From a virus, in IMG/VR virus record IMGVR_UViG_3300013131_000217, positions 1 to 26,353 of that record: DNA of 26,353 nt. One strand, written 5' to 3'. Below the pieces are notes generated by a model. It was not told the DNA's origin, made no database searches, and saw only the letters and a program-made list of their open reading frames with translations. The position numbers and the translations under genes were made by a program. Of the stretch, positions 5,690-11,239 are shown piece by piece; the first letter of the stretch is position 1; the number at the start of each line of letters is the position of its first letter.

Positions 5690-6277
5690 ATGGCTGAGCC
5701 GAAATCGCTGAAAGAAATCATACGAGAAGAGTATAGAAAATGCGCCACTGATCCGGTGCATTTTATGCGAAAATACTGTCAAATTCAACATCCACAAAAA
5801 GGAAAAATTCCATTTCATTTATATCCATTTCAAGAAAGAACATTGCGAGATTTGCGAGATCATGATTATAATATAATTTTGAAATCTCGGCAATTAGGAA
5901 TTTCTACATTGACAGCAGGATATGCATTATGGTTAATGACGTTTTTTGGCGACAAAAATATTTTAGTTATTGCTACAAAACAAGAAGTAGCGAAAAATCT
6001 CGTTCTCAAAGTAAAAGTAATGTATGAAAATCTTCCGTCTTGGTTGAAACTACCAGCTACGGAAGATAATAAATTATCGCTACGTCTTAATAACGGATCA
6101 CAGATAAAAGCAACTTCAGCAGCAGGTGATTCCGGTCGTTCAGAAGCACTTTCTTTATTAATAGTAGATGAGTGTTGTGAATATAATACGAATATAACAA
6201 TACGTAATAAGCATACAGGAGTTATCGAAGAAATTTCAATTGGAGATTTTTATAATCGTCTAGAAAATACGTATTAG
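5690..6277 (+). CDS. terL: Large terminase N-terminal part (gp17-like ATPase) fused to split-intein N-half
   Basis: 195 residues. Residues 1-161 are the N-terminal ATPase portion of a T4 gp17-like large terminase: KSRQLGIST (65-73) is the Walker A-like motif and SLLIVDE (155-161) is Walker B with catalytic E161. Directly after E161 the sequence changes to an intein start, CCEYNTNITIRNKHTG, with C162 as splicing Cys1 and Thr at intein position 6 (block A). The N-intein is only 34 residues and ends at a TAG stop (6275-6277). The rest of the enzyme is encoded at 7607-8719 and would be joined by trans-splicing to give LLIVDE-CAFI, the normal Walker B context (usually LLIVDEAAFI). The spliced enzyme has 531 residues. 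The stop is therefore not a pseudogene mutation. Confidence 0.92.
   Translation: MAEPKSLKEIIREEYRKCATDPVHFMRKYCQIQHPQKGKIPFHLYPFQERTLRDLRDHDYNIILKSRQLGISTLTAGYALWLMTFFGDKNILVIATKQEVAKNLVLKVKVMYENLPSWLKLPATEDNKLSLRLNNGSQIKATSAAGDSGRSEALSLLIVDECCEYNTNITIRNKHTGVIEEISIGDFYNRLENTY
6173..6274 (+). other. Split intein N-half (34 aa) in terminase
   Basis: Begins at C162 of the upstream terminase gene and holds only intein block A (Cys1, Thr6, ISIGDFYNRL at its end). Such a short N-fragment is unlike the common DnaE-type split (about 100 + 35) and matches the atypical class known from AceL-TerL, an experimentally studied terminase intein with about 25 + 104 residues. The assignment to that class rests on split position, host gene and recalled resemblance. 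Confidence 0.88.
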
Positions 6278-6279
6278 CC

Positions 6280-6287
6280 ATATTTAT
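6280..6287 (+). promoter_or_regulatory. ATATTTAT motif upstream of homing endonuclease gene
   Basis: Exact copy, 26 bases before ATG 6306, placed within the gap between the terminase N-part and the endonuclease. It would let the endonuclease and the coupled terminase C-part be transcribed independently. A 10-base palindrome AATACGTATT (6266-6275) spans the end of the preceding gene. Confidence 0.5.
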
Positions 6288-6305
6288 TTAAAACAAAGAC
6301 TTTAT

Positions 6306-7283
6306 ATGGATATATCTATTTTATATAATAAGTGCGGTGACTTATGCGCTGGGCTTGAAAATATATCGTTTTATCAAAAACGTAATTTAATTACTTTATA
6401 TAATGATATACACGAAACTACGTCGTTTTTAAATAATTACAATGTTTCGATGAAAGAACGTATATTTTATATAAAAAATAATCTTTTAAATTTACAGCAA
6501 TGTATTTATTGTAATATCAATAAACTCACATACCATACAAACACAAAATCGCTGTCAGTTACATGTGGAAACGACGATTGCATCAAAAAATCAAAACTTA
6601 GATATCGAGATACAAGTCATTTATATGTATATAAAACATGTAATTGCGGCAGTCAATATAAAGTTTCAAAAAAATCTGGCTTAAGCAAACAATATTGTTC
6701 TAGAAAATGTTACGTTAAATTTAAGCAATATACTCATAGCGTATATACAATCGAAAAAATACGAATATCAAATAAAAAAACACATAATGATCCTAAGTGG
6801 CGCGAGTCGAAAAAAGATATTTACGACCAATCACATAAAAAAATTTCTGCTACTATGAAAAAAAAGATTTCAGAAGGATCATTTACCCCGTGTATTACAA
6901 ATTCATGGACAAAATGGTCAGCGTATGTAAATATTAATAATCAATGCAGAAAATTTCGAAGCTTTTGGGAGGCATCATTTTTTGTATTAAATACAAATTT
7001 AGAATTTGAAAAAATACGTATACCATATACATATAATAATCAAATTCATAGTTATATTGTCGATTTTGTTGATATGACTAATAAAATACTATACGAAATA
7101 AAACCAAATTCTACAAAAACAAATGAACTAAATCAAATTAAATTTTCTGCAGCTCATGATTGGGCAAAAATTAATGGATATTCGTTTAAAATTATATCAG
7201 ACGATTGGTTTAAACAAAATGCAAAGACTATTGATTATACGAATCATCCGCAATTATATAGTTCAATGAAACAATTTTTATGA
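6306..7283 (+). CDS. Free-standing Vsr-like (EDxHD) homing endonuclease inside fractured terminase
   Basis: 325 residues. The N-terminal half has paired Cys clusters (C66-x2-C69, C87-x4-C92, C112-x-C114, C131-x3-C135), likely zinc fingers. Residues 172-196 (DQSHKKISATMKKKISEGSF) form the helical DNA-binding stretch common in phage homing endonucleases. The C-terminal part (216-303) matches the Vsr/PD-(D/E)xK-type EDxHD family: FRSFWEASF with E222, IHSYIVDF with D253, YEIKP with E264 and K266, and a closing helix-strand with DDW. This family was described in genes fractured by split inteins, where the endonuclease gene lies between the intein halves exactly as here. It would cut intein-less terminase alleles and spread the insertion. 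Its stop overlaps the downstream start (ATGA 7280-7283). The sequence is especially A+T-rich, in keeping with acquisition. Confidence 0.88.
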   Translation: MDISILYNKCGDLCAGLENISFYQKRNLITLYNDIHETTSFLNNYNVSMKERIFYIKNNLLNLQQCIYCNINKLTYHTNTKSLSVTCGNDDCIKKSKLRYRDTSHLYVYKTCNCGSQYKVSKKSGLSKQYCSRKCYVKFKQYTHSVYTIEKIRISNKKTHNDPKWRESKKDIYDQSHKKISATMKKKISEGSFTPCITNSWTKWSAYVNINNQCRKFRSFWEASFFVLNTNLEFEKIRIPYTYNNQIHSYIVDFVDMTNKILYEIKPNSTKTNELNQIKFSAAHDWAKINGYSFKIISDDWFKQNAKTIDYTNHPQLYSSMKQFL

Positions 7284-7606
7284 AAAATATAGTAAAAAAT
7301 ACAGACTATGAAATTTTAACACCTTCAGGATTTTCTGATTTTGACGGAGTCACAAAAACCGAATCTGAAGTTATTTTTCAGTTAACGTTTAATGATAATT
7401 CATATTTACAATGTACGGAAAATCATTTACTAAAACTAGAAACTGACGTATTTTTAGAAGCATGTCATATACAAATTGGCGATATATTATCAAACGGTAA
7501 AATCGTTTCAGATATAACATATAAAACTGGCGGTTTTTTAGTTTTTGATCCAATTAATGTACATATGAACAATGAATATTACAGTAATGATATTGTCAGC
7601 CATAAT
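7280..7606 (+). other. Split intein C-half (109 aa) in terminase
   Basis: Carries block B (TENH) through block G (SHN before Cys+1), i.e. nearly the whole HINT fold. It has its own ATG. Phrases such as ILTPSGFSDFDGV and FDPINV recall the C-half of the AceL-TerL intein. The endonuclease is not in the intein but encoded separately just upstream. Confidence 0.88.
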
Positions 7607-8719
7607 TGTGCATTTATTTCTAACGTTGAAGAAATTTGGATATCAGCTCAACAAACGTTAGCAACGGGCGGCGGAGCTATTATTTTATCAACTCCAAACG
7701 GTACCGGTAACTTTTTTCATCAAACATGGGTTGAAGCGGAAACCAATCCGAAAAGTAAATTTAATCCAATCAAGTTACATTGGTCAGTACATCCGGATCG
7801 AAATCAAAGTTGGAGAACTCTTCAAGATGAACTTTTAGGCACGAAAGGCGCAGCTCAGGAATGTGATTGCGATTTTGTAGCTTCTGGACATACCGTTATT
7901 GACGGTCCATTAATTCAATGGTTTCAACAAACTACAGTGCAAGACCCGGTTGAAATGCGTGGAGTCGATCAAGCTTTATGGATTTGGGAACATGTAGATT
8001 TTACGAAAAATTACATTGTCGTGGCAGACGTTGCGCGTGGTGATGGAGGAGATAACTCTGCATTTCATGTAATTGAAATTGAGTCGGTTACGCAAGTTGC
8101 TGAATTCAAAGCACAACTTCCAACAAAAGAGTATGGAAATTTACTGGTGAATATTGCTACTGAATATAATGATGCATTGTTAGTAATTGAAAATGCTAAT
8201 ATTGGATGGGCTGTAATACAAGTAGCTTTGGACAGAGGATATAAAAATTTATACTATTCACCAAAAGATTCTTCAGTAGCTGACGTGTCGCAACAGTTAG
8301 CTCGATATATTGATTTAAAAGACACAGCTCAAATGACTCCAGGATTTACTACATCATCACGCACTCGACCTCTTTTAATTTCTAAATTAGATATGTATAC
8401 GAAAGAGCGAGCTGTTGTTATTAGAAGTAAGCGATTAATTGAAGAATTGTTTGTATTTATTTGGAACGGTTCAAAAGCTGAAGCGCAGCATGGTTACAAT
8501 GACGATTTAGTACTTTCATTTTCCATAGGGCTATGGATACGAGATACAGCCCTTAAACTTCGTCAGCAAGGTTTGGATATGCACAGAAAAACTTTGGATT
8601 ATTATGGAAAAGGATATCAAGGAGCTTACGGCAGTATTGCGTCTTCAAGAAAAGATGCTGGTTGGACAATGCCTACCGGGCCTACCGGGCAAGATATGGA
8701 CTTGACTTGGCTGTTGTAA
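7280..8719 (+). CDS. terL: Split-intein C-half fused to large terminase C-terminal part (motor end + nuclease)
   Basis: 479 residues starting in ATGA overlap with the endonuclease. Residues 1-109 are the C-intein: ILTPSGFSDFDGV near the start, CTENH (block B TxxH, T46-H49), LVFDPINV, and IVSHN-C at the end (terminal H108-N109; Cys110 is the +1 extein residue). From C110 the protein continues as terminase: CAFISNVEEIW, the coupling motif STPNGTGN (137-144), then the RNase H-like nuclease with D250 (VVADVARGDGGD), E304 (LLVIEN) and D408/D409 (YNDDLV). The nuclease triad is intact, so the spliced enzyme should package and cut DNA. The tail has a small tandem duplication (PTGPTG). Trans-splicing with the product of 5690-6277 is required for activity. 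Confidence 0.92.
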   Translation: MKNIVKNTDYEILTPSGFSDFDGVTKTESEVIFQLTFNDNSYLQCTENHLLKLETDVFLEACHIQIGDILSNGKIVSDITYKTGGFLVFDPINVHMNNEYYSNDIVSHNCAFISNVEEIWISAQQTLATGGGAIILSTPNGTGNFFHQTWVEAETNPKSKFNPIKLHWSVHPDRNQSWRTLQDELLGTKGAAQECDCDFVASGHTVIDGPLIQWFQQTTVQDPVEMRGVDQALWIWEHVDFTKNYIVVADVARGDGGDNSAFHVIEIESVTQVAEFKAQLPTKEYGNLLVNIATEYNDALLVIENANIGWAVIQVALDRGYKNLYYSPKDSSVADVSQQLARYIDLKDTAQMTPGFTTSSRTRPLLISKLDMYTKERAVVIRSKRLIEELFVFIWNGSKAEAQHGYNDDLVLSFSIGLWIRDTALKLRQQGLDMHRKTLDYYGKGYQGAYGSIASSRKDAGWTMPTGPTGQDMDLTWLL

Positions 8720-8770: not shown

Positions 8771-11239
8771 ATGGCAGATAAAAGTCTTTACGGTCGTTTA
8801 AAGCGTCTATTCAATAATAATGTAATCGTTCGTCGAGTTGGAAAATCAGCTTTACGAGTGATTGACAATGATCATTTACAATCGTTAGGAAATGCACATA
8901 ATTCAAAGTTTGTAGATCGCTTCACTCGTTTACATGGAGTGCGACCTCACTCAATGAACACGTACAATCCAAACTACAATTACTTTTCTTCAAAAACAGA
9001 ATTGTATACTGATTATGAAGTTATGGATCAAGATTCTATCATAGCATCGGCATTAGACATTTATGCAGACGAAACTGTAATGAAAGATGATTTCGGAGAC
9101 GTGCTGCGCATTACTAGCGACAATGAAAATATTAAAAAGATTTTACATAATTTATTTTATGATGTTTTAAATATTGAATTTAATTTATGGCCATGGGTTC
9201 GTAATATGTGTAAATACGGAGACTTGTATTTACGCTTAGATGTTCATGATGAAATAGGAATTGTAAATGTCGTGCCAATGTCTGCATATGAAATTATTCG
9301 TGAAGAAGGAGTTGCATTGGACAATCCATATCACGTGCAATTCAAACAATTAGGAGGCGGAAACATCATATATGAAAATTTTGAAATCGCACATTTTCGA
9401 TTGCTAAACGATTCAAATTTTCTTCCATACGGTAAATCAATGATCGAACCAGCTCGTAAAGTTTGGAAACAGTTAACGTTGATGGAAGATGCGATGTTAA
9501 TTCATCGTATAATGAGAGCACCAGAAAAGCGAATTTTTAAAATTGACGTTGGTAATATTCCTCCAAATGAAATTGATAACTACATGCAACGTATTATCAA
9601 TCAAATGAGAAAAACTCCGTATGTCGATCCTCAGACCGGCGATTACAATTTGAAATTCAATATGCAAAACATGTTGGAAGATTATTTCCTTCCTGTGCGT
9701 GGAGGGCAATCTGGAACTGAAATTGACACTTTAAGTGGAATGGAATTTACCGGTATTGATGACTTAGAGTATCTACGAAATAAAATGATGGCTGCGCTGA
9801 AAGTGCCTAAAGCTTTTTTAGGTTACGAAGAAGGATTGTGTATAGCTCCGGATACGTTAATACCTTTGATGTCAGGAGAAGAAAAAACAGTTTTACAATT
9901 AATAGAAGATTATGAAAATGGCATAAAAAATTACGTCTATTCAATTGATGAAGAGTCAAAATTAATTGTACCCGGCGAAATAGAATGGGCTGGATTTACT
10001 CGTATGAATGCAAAAATAGTACGCGTTCATTTAGATAACGGAAAATATATAGACTGCACACCTGATCATAACTTTTTAACAAGAGATGGTGAATGGATAG
10101 AAGCACAAAATTTAGTTGCCGATCAATCATTAATGCCGTTATATACTAGGTTATCAACAAATAAAAATATATCCGGATATACTGAAGTATATCATCCTGG
10201 GACGGGGAAATGGGAAATGGTACATAGATTGGTATCTAATTATTATGATAAATTTGATATTGATAGATATAGTTTTGTAGACGTTCATATGCCATTAGCT
10301 AAAGTTAACAAAGGTTTTATAAATAATTTTAAAGGAGAGTATGCTAATCATAAAGTAGTTAATGTAGAATTTTTATCAGAACAAATTGACACGTGTGATT
10401 TAACAATAACTAAATATCATAATTTTGCGACATCAGCGGGGGTGATAATTCACAATTCAGGAAAAGCGACACTCGCAGCTGAAGACGTTCGTTTTGCTCG
10501 CACTATAGAACGAATTCAAAGAATTGTAATTTCTGAGCTTCATAAAATAGCTATTGTGCATTTATTTTCGCAAGGATTTAAAGACGCTGAACTCATAGAT
10601 TTTGAATTGACTATGACATCGCCGTCGACTATTTACGAGCAAGAAAAATTAACTTTATACAATACCAAAGTTGATTTGGCTAAATCTATGGTAGAAGGAA
10701 AAATAATGTCCAAAGAATGGATTTATAAAAATATATTTAACTTTACAGATTCAGACGCTACTGCTATTGAATTAGGTCTAATAGAAGATGCAAAAGAATC
10801 TTTTAGATTGACAAAAATCAATGACGAAGGTGAAGATCCAGCAGCGAAAGAAGAAAAGCCTAAAGAAGAAGGCGGAGAGGGAGATGAGACAGAAGAAAAA
10901 GGAGAAGAAAAAGATAAAGAAGAAAAAGAAGGCGGTAATCCATTTGAAAGTGTAAATAAAACTTTAATGAAAAAGTACGATTCAGAGGCAAAATCTAAGC
11001 GAACTCCTGAAGGAGGATGGCCTGGAGCTGGTCGACCGAAGGAAGGTGTGAAATACAATACACACGAACATCCCCGAGGTTACGATCCAATTGGCCGAGT
11101 TGCGTGGAAAAATGCACGAAATGAATCAGTATCCGACGTAATTAACAAATACGGATTGCAAAAATTTACTAAAAAATCTAAGAAAATTATTTCTGAAAAT
11201 TCTTCATTGTTAGATGAGTCGAACCTTATTGAAGATTAA
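8771..11239 (+). CDS. 20: Portal vertex protein (gp20-like) containing an in-frame intein
   Basis: 822 residues as translated, 616 after removal of the intein at residues 357-562. The portal is the dodecameric head vertex through which DNA is pumped; it initiates head assembly and docks the terminase. Extein signatures: TDYEVMDQDSIIASALDIYADE (80-101), the central WKQLTLMEDAMLIHRIMRAPEKRIF segment (232-256), DDLEYLRNKMMAALKVPKAFLGYEE (330-354) and, after the intein, SGKATLAAEDVRFARTIERIQR, a highly conserved gp20 stretch. The extein junction reads GYEEGL-SGKATL. The C-terminus has an acidic Glu/Lys/Gly linker (about 692-727) followed by GWPGAGRPKEG and HEHPRGYDPIG. The terminase lies directly upstream; no sheath or tube gene comes between. 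Confidence 0.93.
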   Translation: MADKSLYGRLKRLFNNNVIVRRVGKSALRVIDNDHLQSLGNAHNSKFVDRFTRLHGVRPHSMNTYNPNYNYFSSKTELYTDYEVMDQDSIIASALDIYADETVMKDDFGDVLRITSDNENIKKILHNLFYDVLNIEFNLWPWVRNMCKYGDLYLRLDVHDEIGIVNVVPMSAYEIIREEGVALDNPYHVQFKQLGGGNIIYENFEIAHFRLLNDSNFLPYGKSMIEPARKVWKQLTLMEDAMLIHRIMRAPEKRIFKIDVGNIPPNEIDNYMQRIINQMRKTPYVDPQTGDYNLKFNMQNMLEDYFLPVRGGQSGTEIDTLSGMEFTGIDDLEYLRNKMMAALKVPKAFLGYEEGLCIAPDTLIPLMSGEEKTVLQLIEDYENGIKNYVYSIDEESKLIVPGEIEWAGFTRMNAKIVRVHLDNGKYIDCTPDHNFLTRDGEWIEAQNLVADQSLMPLYTRLSTNKNISGYTEVYHPGTGKWEMVHRLVSNYYDKFDIDRYSFVDVHMPLAKVNKGFINNFKGEYANHKVVNVEFLSEQIDTCDLTITKYHNFATSAGVIIHNSGKATLAAEDVRFARTIERIQRIVISELHKIAIVHLFSQGFKDAELIDFELTMTSPSTIYEQEKLTLYNTKVDLAKSMVEGKIMSKEWIYKNIFNFTDSDATAIELGLIEDAKESFRLTKINDEGEDPAAKEEKPKEEGGEGDETEEKGEEKDKEEKEGGNPFESVNKTLMKKYDSEAKSKRTPEGGWPGAGRPKEGVKYNTHEHPRGYDPIGRVAWKNARNESVSDVINKYGLQKFTKKSKKIISENSSLLDESNLIED
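9839..10456 (+). other. Cis-splicing intein (206 aa) in portal protein
   Basis: The intein starts CIAPDTLIPL (Cys1, Thr6) and ends GVIIHN before Ser+1. Block B is CTPDHNFL (T430, H433 of the precursor) and block F is CDLTITKYHNFAT. All residues needed for splicing are present. Between blocks B and F a stretch of about 75 residues (YTEVYHPGTGKWEMVHRLV and following) resembles the N-terminal part of HNH-type intein endonucleases, but no His-Asn-His core is visible. I read it as an intein with a decayed or deleted endonuclease. Confidence 0.92.

What the first reader, a model, noticed from the sequence alone, without database searches (positions are those of the whole stretch)
5690..8719. Large terminase fractured by an atypical naturally split intein with the endonuclease encoded between the halves
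Seen: a terminase ATPase domain ends right after Walker B Glu161 with an intein start (C162, Thr6) and a stop 34 codons later. A separate endonuclease gene follows, then a gene starting with an intein C-part (block B TENH, terminal SHN-C) that continues with the missing terminase half. Known: most natural split inteins have a long N-part; the AceL-TerL class in phage terminases has a very short N-part and a long C-part. 'Fractured genes' with EDxHD endonucleases have been described from environmental phage DNA. Inference: a functional trans-splicing terminase in which 34 + 109 residues rebuild one HINT domain. A new member of this rare class would also be a useful comparison for split-intein biochemistry.
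Basis: partly seen in the sequence, partly recalled or inferred. Interest (0 to 1): 0.92.

Follow-up and report, generated by a model that had tools for sequence, protein, structure and literature searches.

The report
Phage packaging gene fractured by split intein
In this uncultured virus the gene for the DNA-packaging motor is cut in two by a mobile element whose two small pieces very probably weld the protein halves back together, and comparison with other phages shows that such elements hop between viruses and also occur in lab-grown phages.

Summary
The anatomy is confirmed. TerL is split into TerL-N plus a 34-aa intein N-part (5690-6277), a free endonuclease gene (6306-7283), and a 109-aa intein C-part plus TerL-C (7280-8719). 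An independent contig repeats the arrangement. In 141 related TerL genes that exact codon junction is uninterrupted. The C-part folds like the atypically split Cat intein (Foldseek E 6e-8). Protein trans-splicing is by far the best explanation; it was not shown experimentally.

Two corrections. (1) It is not at the AceL-TerL site: all 80 Cat-like relatives sit further downstream (FE|CEFLG), with a GIY-YIG nuclease in those read. This one follows Walker B (VDE|CAF). (2) Its endonuclease is a TnsA/T7-endo-I-like PD-(D/E)XK enzyme, not EDxHD.

The Walker-B-site family includes cultured coliphages, 39 Fletchervirus records (halves about 25 kb apart on opposite strands where mapped), a split pair without nuclease, and uninterrupted inteins. 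Vacant alleles in this lineage carry Ala at +1; occupied ones always Cys. Two related phages share a 99% identical cassette inside 72-79% identical genes, and one shows a co-conversion-like footprint: evidence that such cassettes move as a unit.

The parts
5690..6172 (+). TerL N-extein (161 aa): ATPase domain up to Walker B LLIVDE
   Evidence: PHROG 5989 terminase large subunit E 2e-48, Pfam Terminase_6N E 1e-7; 87-92% identical to vacant TerL L001-L003
6173..6277 (+). Intein N-part, 34 residues from Cys1, with TAG stop at 6275-6277
   Evidence: Aligns end to end with other terminase intein N-parts, E 2e-9 to CP30A, E 6e-8 to L044
6306..7283 (+). Free-standing endonuclease gene, 325 aa, PD-(D/E)XK type; E222 (6969), D253 (7062), E264 (7095), K266 (7101)
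   Evidence: Pfam Tn7_TnsA-like_N E 5e-6; PHROG 15427 endonuclease E 9e-28; residues invariant in 7 homologues; profile match to T7 endonuclease I E 8e-4
7280..7606 (+). Intein C-part, 109 residues, ending VSHN
   Evidence: CatC 6dsl E 5e-14; AlphaFold pLDDT 90, top Foldseek hit CatC E 6e-8, TM 0.84
7607..7609 (+). Cys+1 codon (TGT); Ala codon in all vacant relatives examined
   Evidence: 76/76 and 65/65 vacant alleles have Ala; occupied alleles have Cys
7607..8719 (+). TerL C-extein (370 aa): rest of ATPase domain and nuclease domain
   Evidence: PHROG 2 and 36964 terminase large subunit E about 1e-17; 75-78% identical to vacant TerL L001-L003

Best explanation
A fractured terminase gene. An atypically split (short-N, long-C) intein sits directly after the Walker B glutamate of TerL, with a free-standing PD-(D/E)XK homing endonuclease gene between the two intein parts. 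The three genes are translated separately. The 34-residue N-part on the ATPase fragment docks into the 109-residue C-part and completes one HINT domain; Cys1 attacks its scissile bond, the acyl group passes to Cys+1, Asn109 cyclises, and the halves are joined as ...LLIVDE-CAFI.... The endonuclease probably cuts vacant TerL genes at this site, so that repair copies the whole cassette together with its own Cys+1 codon. Shown here: anatomy, homology, fold of the C-part, catalytic residues, precise vacant sites, and, in relatives, purifying selection and cassette transfer. Inferred: splicing, cleavage and homing.
For: Exact ORFs and motifs; independent near-identical contig; C-part homology and fold to the Cat split intein; N-part homology; uninterrupted inteins at the same site in CP21 and SRB7757; 141 relatives uninterrupted exactly there, all with Ala+1 against Cys+1 in occupied alleles; same fracture in cultured HY03, phiR1-RT, PspYZU05 with only one TerL C-half per genome; Fletchervirus halves on opposite strands about 25 kb apart, one C-half per genome; dN/dS about 0.1 on both intein parts in relatives; cassette transfer L044/L091; low GC of the element, 26-27% against 35-39% in the exteins.
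Against: No splicing or cutting was measured. The window is a fragment, so a second intact TerL elsewhere in the genome is not excluded. Intein position 2 is an extra Cys, where every other intein compared has Leu, Val or Ile. Homing evidence comes from relatives, not from the window's own cassette, and ordinary recombination could also have moved the cassette.
Confidence: 0.92

Rival explanations
1. Genes in pieces without splicing: the insertion split TerL and the two polypeptides work as a non-covalent complex, as described for the mobE-split ribonucleotide reductase of T4-like phages.
For: Such a case exists (cited in PMC10448857, and PMC3322345). All TerL motifs are still encoded by the two pieces.
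Against: Both pieces carry conserved, purifying-selected intein halves with a complete set of catalytic residues; Cys+1 replaces Ala only in occupied alleles; the break lies within the ATPase fold next to Walker B, where uncoupled halves are unlikely to work.
Confidence: 0.05
2. A decayed intein: the element no longer splices and the fragment carries a non-functional or redundant terminase.
For: The window is an incomplete genome, so another TerL could exist. An extra Cys at intein position 2 is unusual.
Against: All catalytic residues intact; no stop or frameshift in any of the three ORFs; nearly identical copy in a second sample; relatives with one TerL only are cultured and viable.
Confidence: 0.02
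3. RNA-level splicing (intron with endonuclease) or an assembly error in a continuous gene.
For: A terL intron with a neighbouring endonuclease gene is known in phage ICP1 (PMC10448857).
Against: No Rfam family in the window at gathering threshold; the inserted sequence codes for intein halves in frame with the exteins; the arrangement recurs in independent contigs and finished genomes.
Confidence: 0.01

Closest known systems
AceL-TerL, GOS-TerL and consensus Cat split inteins (IN 25, 37 and 30 aa; Cat IC 104 aa; PMC11766414)
   Same: Terminase inteins split after a very short N-part; homologous C-part (CatC E 5e-14) with the same predicted fold; Cys+1; a nuclease gene between the halves in the Cat-like loci read.
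   Different: Cat-like relatives are all inserted at FE|CEFLG further downstream in TerL (80 of 80) and those tested carry GIY-YIG nucleases; the window is at Walker B with a TnsA-like nuclease.
Walker-B-site split inteins of cultured phages: HY03, SG1, phiR1-RT, PspYZU05, kaaroe, Thanatos-2 and Fletchervirus (CP30A, NCTC12673)
   Same: Same insertion codon, homologous N- and C-parts, and in the T4-like phages a homologous nuclease.
   Different: Kaaroe, TB34 and Thanatos-2 fuse the nuclease to the N-part; Fletchervirus has no nuclease between the halves, which lie about 25 kb apart. Identity of the joined intein to the window is only 29-42%.
Fractured genes with a new homing endonuclease family (Dassa et al. 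2009; paper not held, content from memory and citations)
   Same: A host gene broken by a split intein with a free-standing endonuclease gene between the halves.
   Different: The nuclease family described there is Vsr-like, later called EDxHD (from memory); here it is TnsA/T7-endo-I-like.
Aeromonas phage PX29 gene 17A/17B
   Same: Terminase split by an annotated N-intein and C-intein with a nuclease.
   Different: Different TerL position (QEH|C, near the FE|CEFLG site) and a GIY-YIG nuclease fused to the C-part.

Membership tests
Inteins (HINT splicing domain) | Cys/Ser at position 1, TxxH, block F Asp, C-terminal HN, and Cys/Ser/Thr at +1 | tested here: met
   C162, T46-E-N-H49, D90, H108-N109, C110
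Inteins (HINT splicing domain) | HINT fold | tested here: met
   C-part model pLDDT 90, matches CatC and many inteins; the joined domain was not folded
Inteins (HINT splicing domain) | Protein splicing activity | not testable with these tools
   Needs co-expression and mass spectrometry
Atypically (short-N) naturally split inteins | N-part about 25-40 residues and C-part about 100 residues, encoded in separate ORFs | tested here: met
   34 and 109 residues in separate ORFs; same split in relatives
AceL-TerL / GOS-TerL / Cat allele family | Same TerL insertion site as the Cat-like inteins (before CEFLG) | tested here: not met
   80 of 80 Cat-like loci are before CEFLG, the window is before CAFI after Walker B
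Fractured genes | Split intein with a free-standing endonuclease gene between the gene halves | tested here: met
   Gene order 5690-6277, 6306-7283, 7280-8719
EDxHD (Vsr-like) homing endonucleases | EDxHD catalytic motif | tested here: not met
   Invariant residues are E222, D253, E264, K266, with no conserved DxHD; Pfam TnsA-like; I-Bth0305I appears only as a weak fold match of a poor model
PD-(D/E)XK nucleases, TnsA/T7-endo-I-like | E...D...ExK catalytic signature and family profile match | tested here: met
Homing endonucleases | Cuts the vacant site and promotes copying of its own element | not testable with these tools
   Indirect only, from relatives: cassette transfer and co-conversion-like footprint

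The most novel reading that the evidence does not exclude
The three-part cassette (N-part, TnsA-like nuclease, C-part) is a self-mobile element that homes as a unit into the Walker B codon of phage terminases, carrying its own Cys+1 codon because vacant genes in this lineage encode Ala there. The Walker-B-site elements would then be a separate, largely undescribed lineage of fractured-gene elements with a full series of stages: uninterrupted intein, nuclease fused to the N-part, free nuclease, no nuclease, and halves dispersed in the genome.
Probability: 0.6. Interest if true: 0.66.

Novelty: new variant of a known kind. Interest (0 to 1): 0.55.

Why it matters
Split inteins with very short N-parts are valued for protein labelling, and few natural ones have been characterised. 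This family supplies distinct pairs at a second terminase site, some in phages that grow on ordinary laboratory E. coli, so trans-splicing can be followed in a real infection. The comparison also bears on how split inteins arise and spread: vacant, uninterrupted, nuclease-fused, nuclease-separated, nuclease-free and dispersed versions of an insertion at one codon are all available. A near-identical cassette in divergent terminases, and a vacant allele 98% identical in TerL-C to an occupied one, make homing of a fractured gene directly testable.

Tried and rejected
A mixed C-part alignment was too diverse for a collection scan. The window's nuclease found only its near-duplicate L082 in IMG/VR, so relatives were reached through L044 and Cat. 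The 34-residue N-part alone finds nothing in the PDB. The nuclease model is poor (pLDDT 50, 4 sequences); its fold matches are only weak support. A group I intron was considered and rejected. Monophyly of the Walker-B-site inteins was tested; the tree shows no single clade and weak deep branches, so the site was perhaps occupied more than once, or inteins moved between sites. Promoter and terminator scans were at chance level. Papers by Dassa 2009, Bachmann and Mootz 2015 and Aranko 2014 are not held.

Full report
What is there. The window, a 26,353-base virus record, carries a T4-like packaging and head module. TerL is encoded in two ORFs with a third between them. The first, 5690-6277, is a terminase ATPase fragment (PHROG 5989 E 2e-48, Pfam Terminase_6N E 1e-7) that reaches Walker B ...LLIVDE161, then reads CCEYNTNITIRNKHTGVIEEISIGDFYNRLENTY and stops. 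The second, 6306-7283, is a 325-aa nuclease. The third, 7280-8719, starts inside the nuclease stop (ATGA), runs 109 residues to ...NDIVSHN and continues CAFISNVEEIW... as the rest of TerL (PHROG 2 and 36964, E about 1e-17). Intein parts and nuclease gene are 26-27% GC, against 35% and 39% in the two exteins, so composition changes at the proposed borders.

It is not an assembly error. Contig L082 from metagenome 3300013132 matches the window at 99.77% over 6,426 bases. In the part of the element that it covers the only difference is one synonymous base in the TerL-N gene; the stop, both start codons and the nuclease are identical. The same three-gene fracture is in contigs L044, L091 and L092 and in finished genomes of cultured phages.

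It is an intein. The C-part matches CatC, a consensus atypically split intein (PDB 6dsl), at E 5e-14. Its AlphaFold model (pLDDT 90, 19-sequence alignment) has CatC as best structural match (E 6e-8, TM 0.84 on the query), followed by RadA, VidaL and gp41-1 inteins among others. The 34-residue N-part aligns end to end with other terminase intein N-parts (53% with CP30A, E 2e-9; 51% with L044/L091, E 6e-8). Uninterrupted inteins of 133 aa (Campylobacter phage CP21) and 136 aa (Desulfovibrio phage SRB7757) lie at the same Walker B site and contain both parts in order. Cys1, T-x-x-H, the block F Asp, Ser-His-Asn and Cys+1 are all present. L044, L091 and L092 lack the penultimate His (SSN|C).

The vacant sites. 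TerL relatives in IMG/VR are continuous across exactly this codon: 76 of 76 in one set and 65 of 65 in another read DE|AAF, with Ala where the window has Cys+1. All occupied alleles in this lineage have Cys. A tree of TerL exteins with the +1 residue removed forces at least three changes of occupancy (these could include losses), yet every occupied allele has Cys. Ala to Cys needs two base changes, so the simplest reading is that the element brings its own Cys codon. Ala is not universal elsewhere: Serratia phage 92A1 is vacant here and has Cys.

Mobility, seen in relatives. L044 and L091 share N-part plus gap (99.2%), nuclease (99.3%) and C-part (99.4%) at DNA level, while TerL-N is 78.5% and TerL-C 71.6% identical. 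Synonymous divergence is 0.016 in nuclease and C-part against 1.4 and 2.9 in the exteins. L044 also has a close vacant relative, L095: outside the element they are about 97% identical, except for the last 210 bases before the insertion (about 75%) and the first 6 after it, which include the Cys codon. A long tract on one side and a very short one on the other is what double-strand-break repair from a donor could leave, but ordinary recombination is not excluded. Between L091 and L092 both intein parts are under purifying selection (dN/dS about 0.1; nuclease 0.2). None of this was observed for the window's own cassette, which has only one near-identical copy.

How it differs from AceL-TerL. A review (PMC11766414) gives N-part lengths of 25 (AceL-TerL), 37 (GOS-TerL) and 30 with a 104-residue C-part (Cat). 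A scan with the Cat C-part returned 80 loci with 79-89% identity, all of which continue with CEFLG after the intein. In the loci read in full the N-half ends ...KVEFE and a GIY-YIG nuclease lies between. So the Cat-like class sits at a different TerL position from the window; that AceL-TerL itself sits there is inferred, because its paper was not available. A further arrangement (L151, L157, L165) is fractured at the equivalent ECD|CDF position with a nuclease-like gene that has no good Pfam match.

The endonuclease. Homologues between or fused beside the halves at the Walker B site share E222, D253, E264 and K266 (7 sequences). Pfam gives a TnsA-like N-terminal nuclease domain in the window, L044, HY03 and kaaroe (E 5e-6 to 2e-9), and a profile search of the PDB gives T7 endonuclease I (E 8e-4). 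This is a PD-(D/E)XK enzyme rather than an EDxHD one. Its own model is poor.

The family in cultured phages. tblastn finds a related C-part in 87 phage records. HY03, phiR1-RT, PspYZU05 and others have the same three-gene fracture at Walker B. Kaaroe, TB34 and Thanatos-2 have the N-part fused in frame to the nuclease. L094 has the split without a nuclease. The Fletchervirus N-half is in 39 records and a 90-100% identical C-extein in 39; in CP30A and NCTC12673 the halves are 25-26 kb apart on opposite strands and there is only one TerL C-half. Five T4-like genomes also have a single C-half. TerL is essential in T4-like phages (established knowledge), so these viable phages make a working trans-assembled terminase very likely for the family. 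A tree puts the window's intein with CP30A and the second-site intein of CP21 (support 87/85) but does not make all Walker-B-site inteins one clade.

Prior knowledge. Aeromonas phage PX29 gene 17 is already annotated with N- and C-intein and a GIY-YIG nuclease, at the downstream position. An intein and an intron in TerL were reported for Campylobacter phage IBB_35 (PMC3322345). From memory, the abstract of the NCTC12673 genome paper (Kropinski et al. 2011) mentions a putative trans-splicing intein; gene numbers 55 and 82 are absent from the feature tables here, in keeping with a joined feature. I found no paper in the held library that describes the Walker-B-site fracture in T4-like coliphages, but that library lacks most subscription journals.

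Verdict. The finding is real and the trans-splicing reading is very likely (0.92). It is a variant of a known arrangement: the split and gene order of fractured genes and of the AceL-TerL class, at a different terminase site and with a different kind of nuclease. The comparative series around it and the cassette transfer in its relatives raise its interest.

Noticed in passing
window 9839-10456, inside portal gene 8771-11239: The portal gene carries its own uninterrupted 206-residue intein (GL|CIAPDT...VIIHN|SGKA; Pfam Intein_splicing E 1e-16). TerL and portal, two neighbouring packaging genes, are thus both invaded.
   Followed up: partly
L044 5163-6862; also L091, L092, L094 downstream of TerL: Portal genes of these relatives carry an intein at a different portal position (YDC|VGPDT...VSN|TMDMD), so the portal gene also has at least two insertion sites.
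   Followed up: no
L253 1106-5416 (Campylobacter phage CP21): One terminase appears to hold three inteins: an uninterrupted one at Walker A, a split one with a T5orf172-type nuclease between the halves, and an uninterrupted one at Walker B.
   Followed up: partly
L151 5382-6143, L157 3478-4251, L165 5370-6143: A terminase fractured at the downstream site with a gene of about 253 residues between the halves that has no good Pfam match; possibly an undescribed nuclease family.
   Followed up: partly
Fletchervirus CP30A: N-half 49486-50202 (-), C-half 74590-75918 (+): Terminase halves with intein parts lie about 25 kb apart on opposite strands; the N-half is annotated as hypothetical protein in several records.
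   Followed up: yes
PHROG 5989 (347-position terminase family): The window's N-half matches this family through residue 193, into the intein N-part, so a short 'terminase' family in a public library may consist of unrecognised split N-halves.
   Followed up: no
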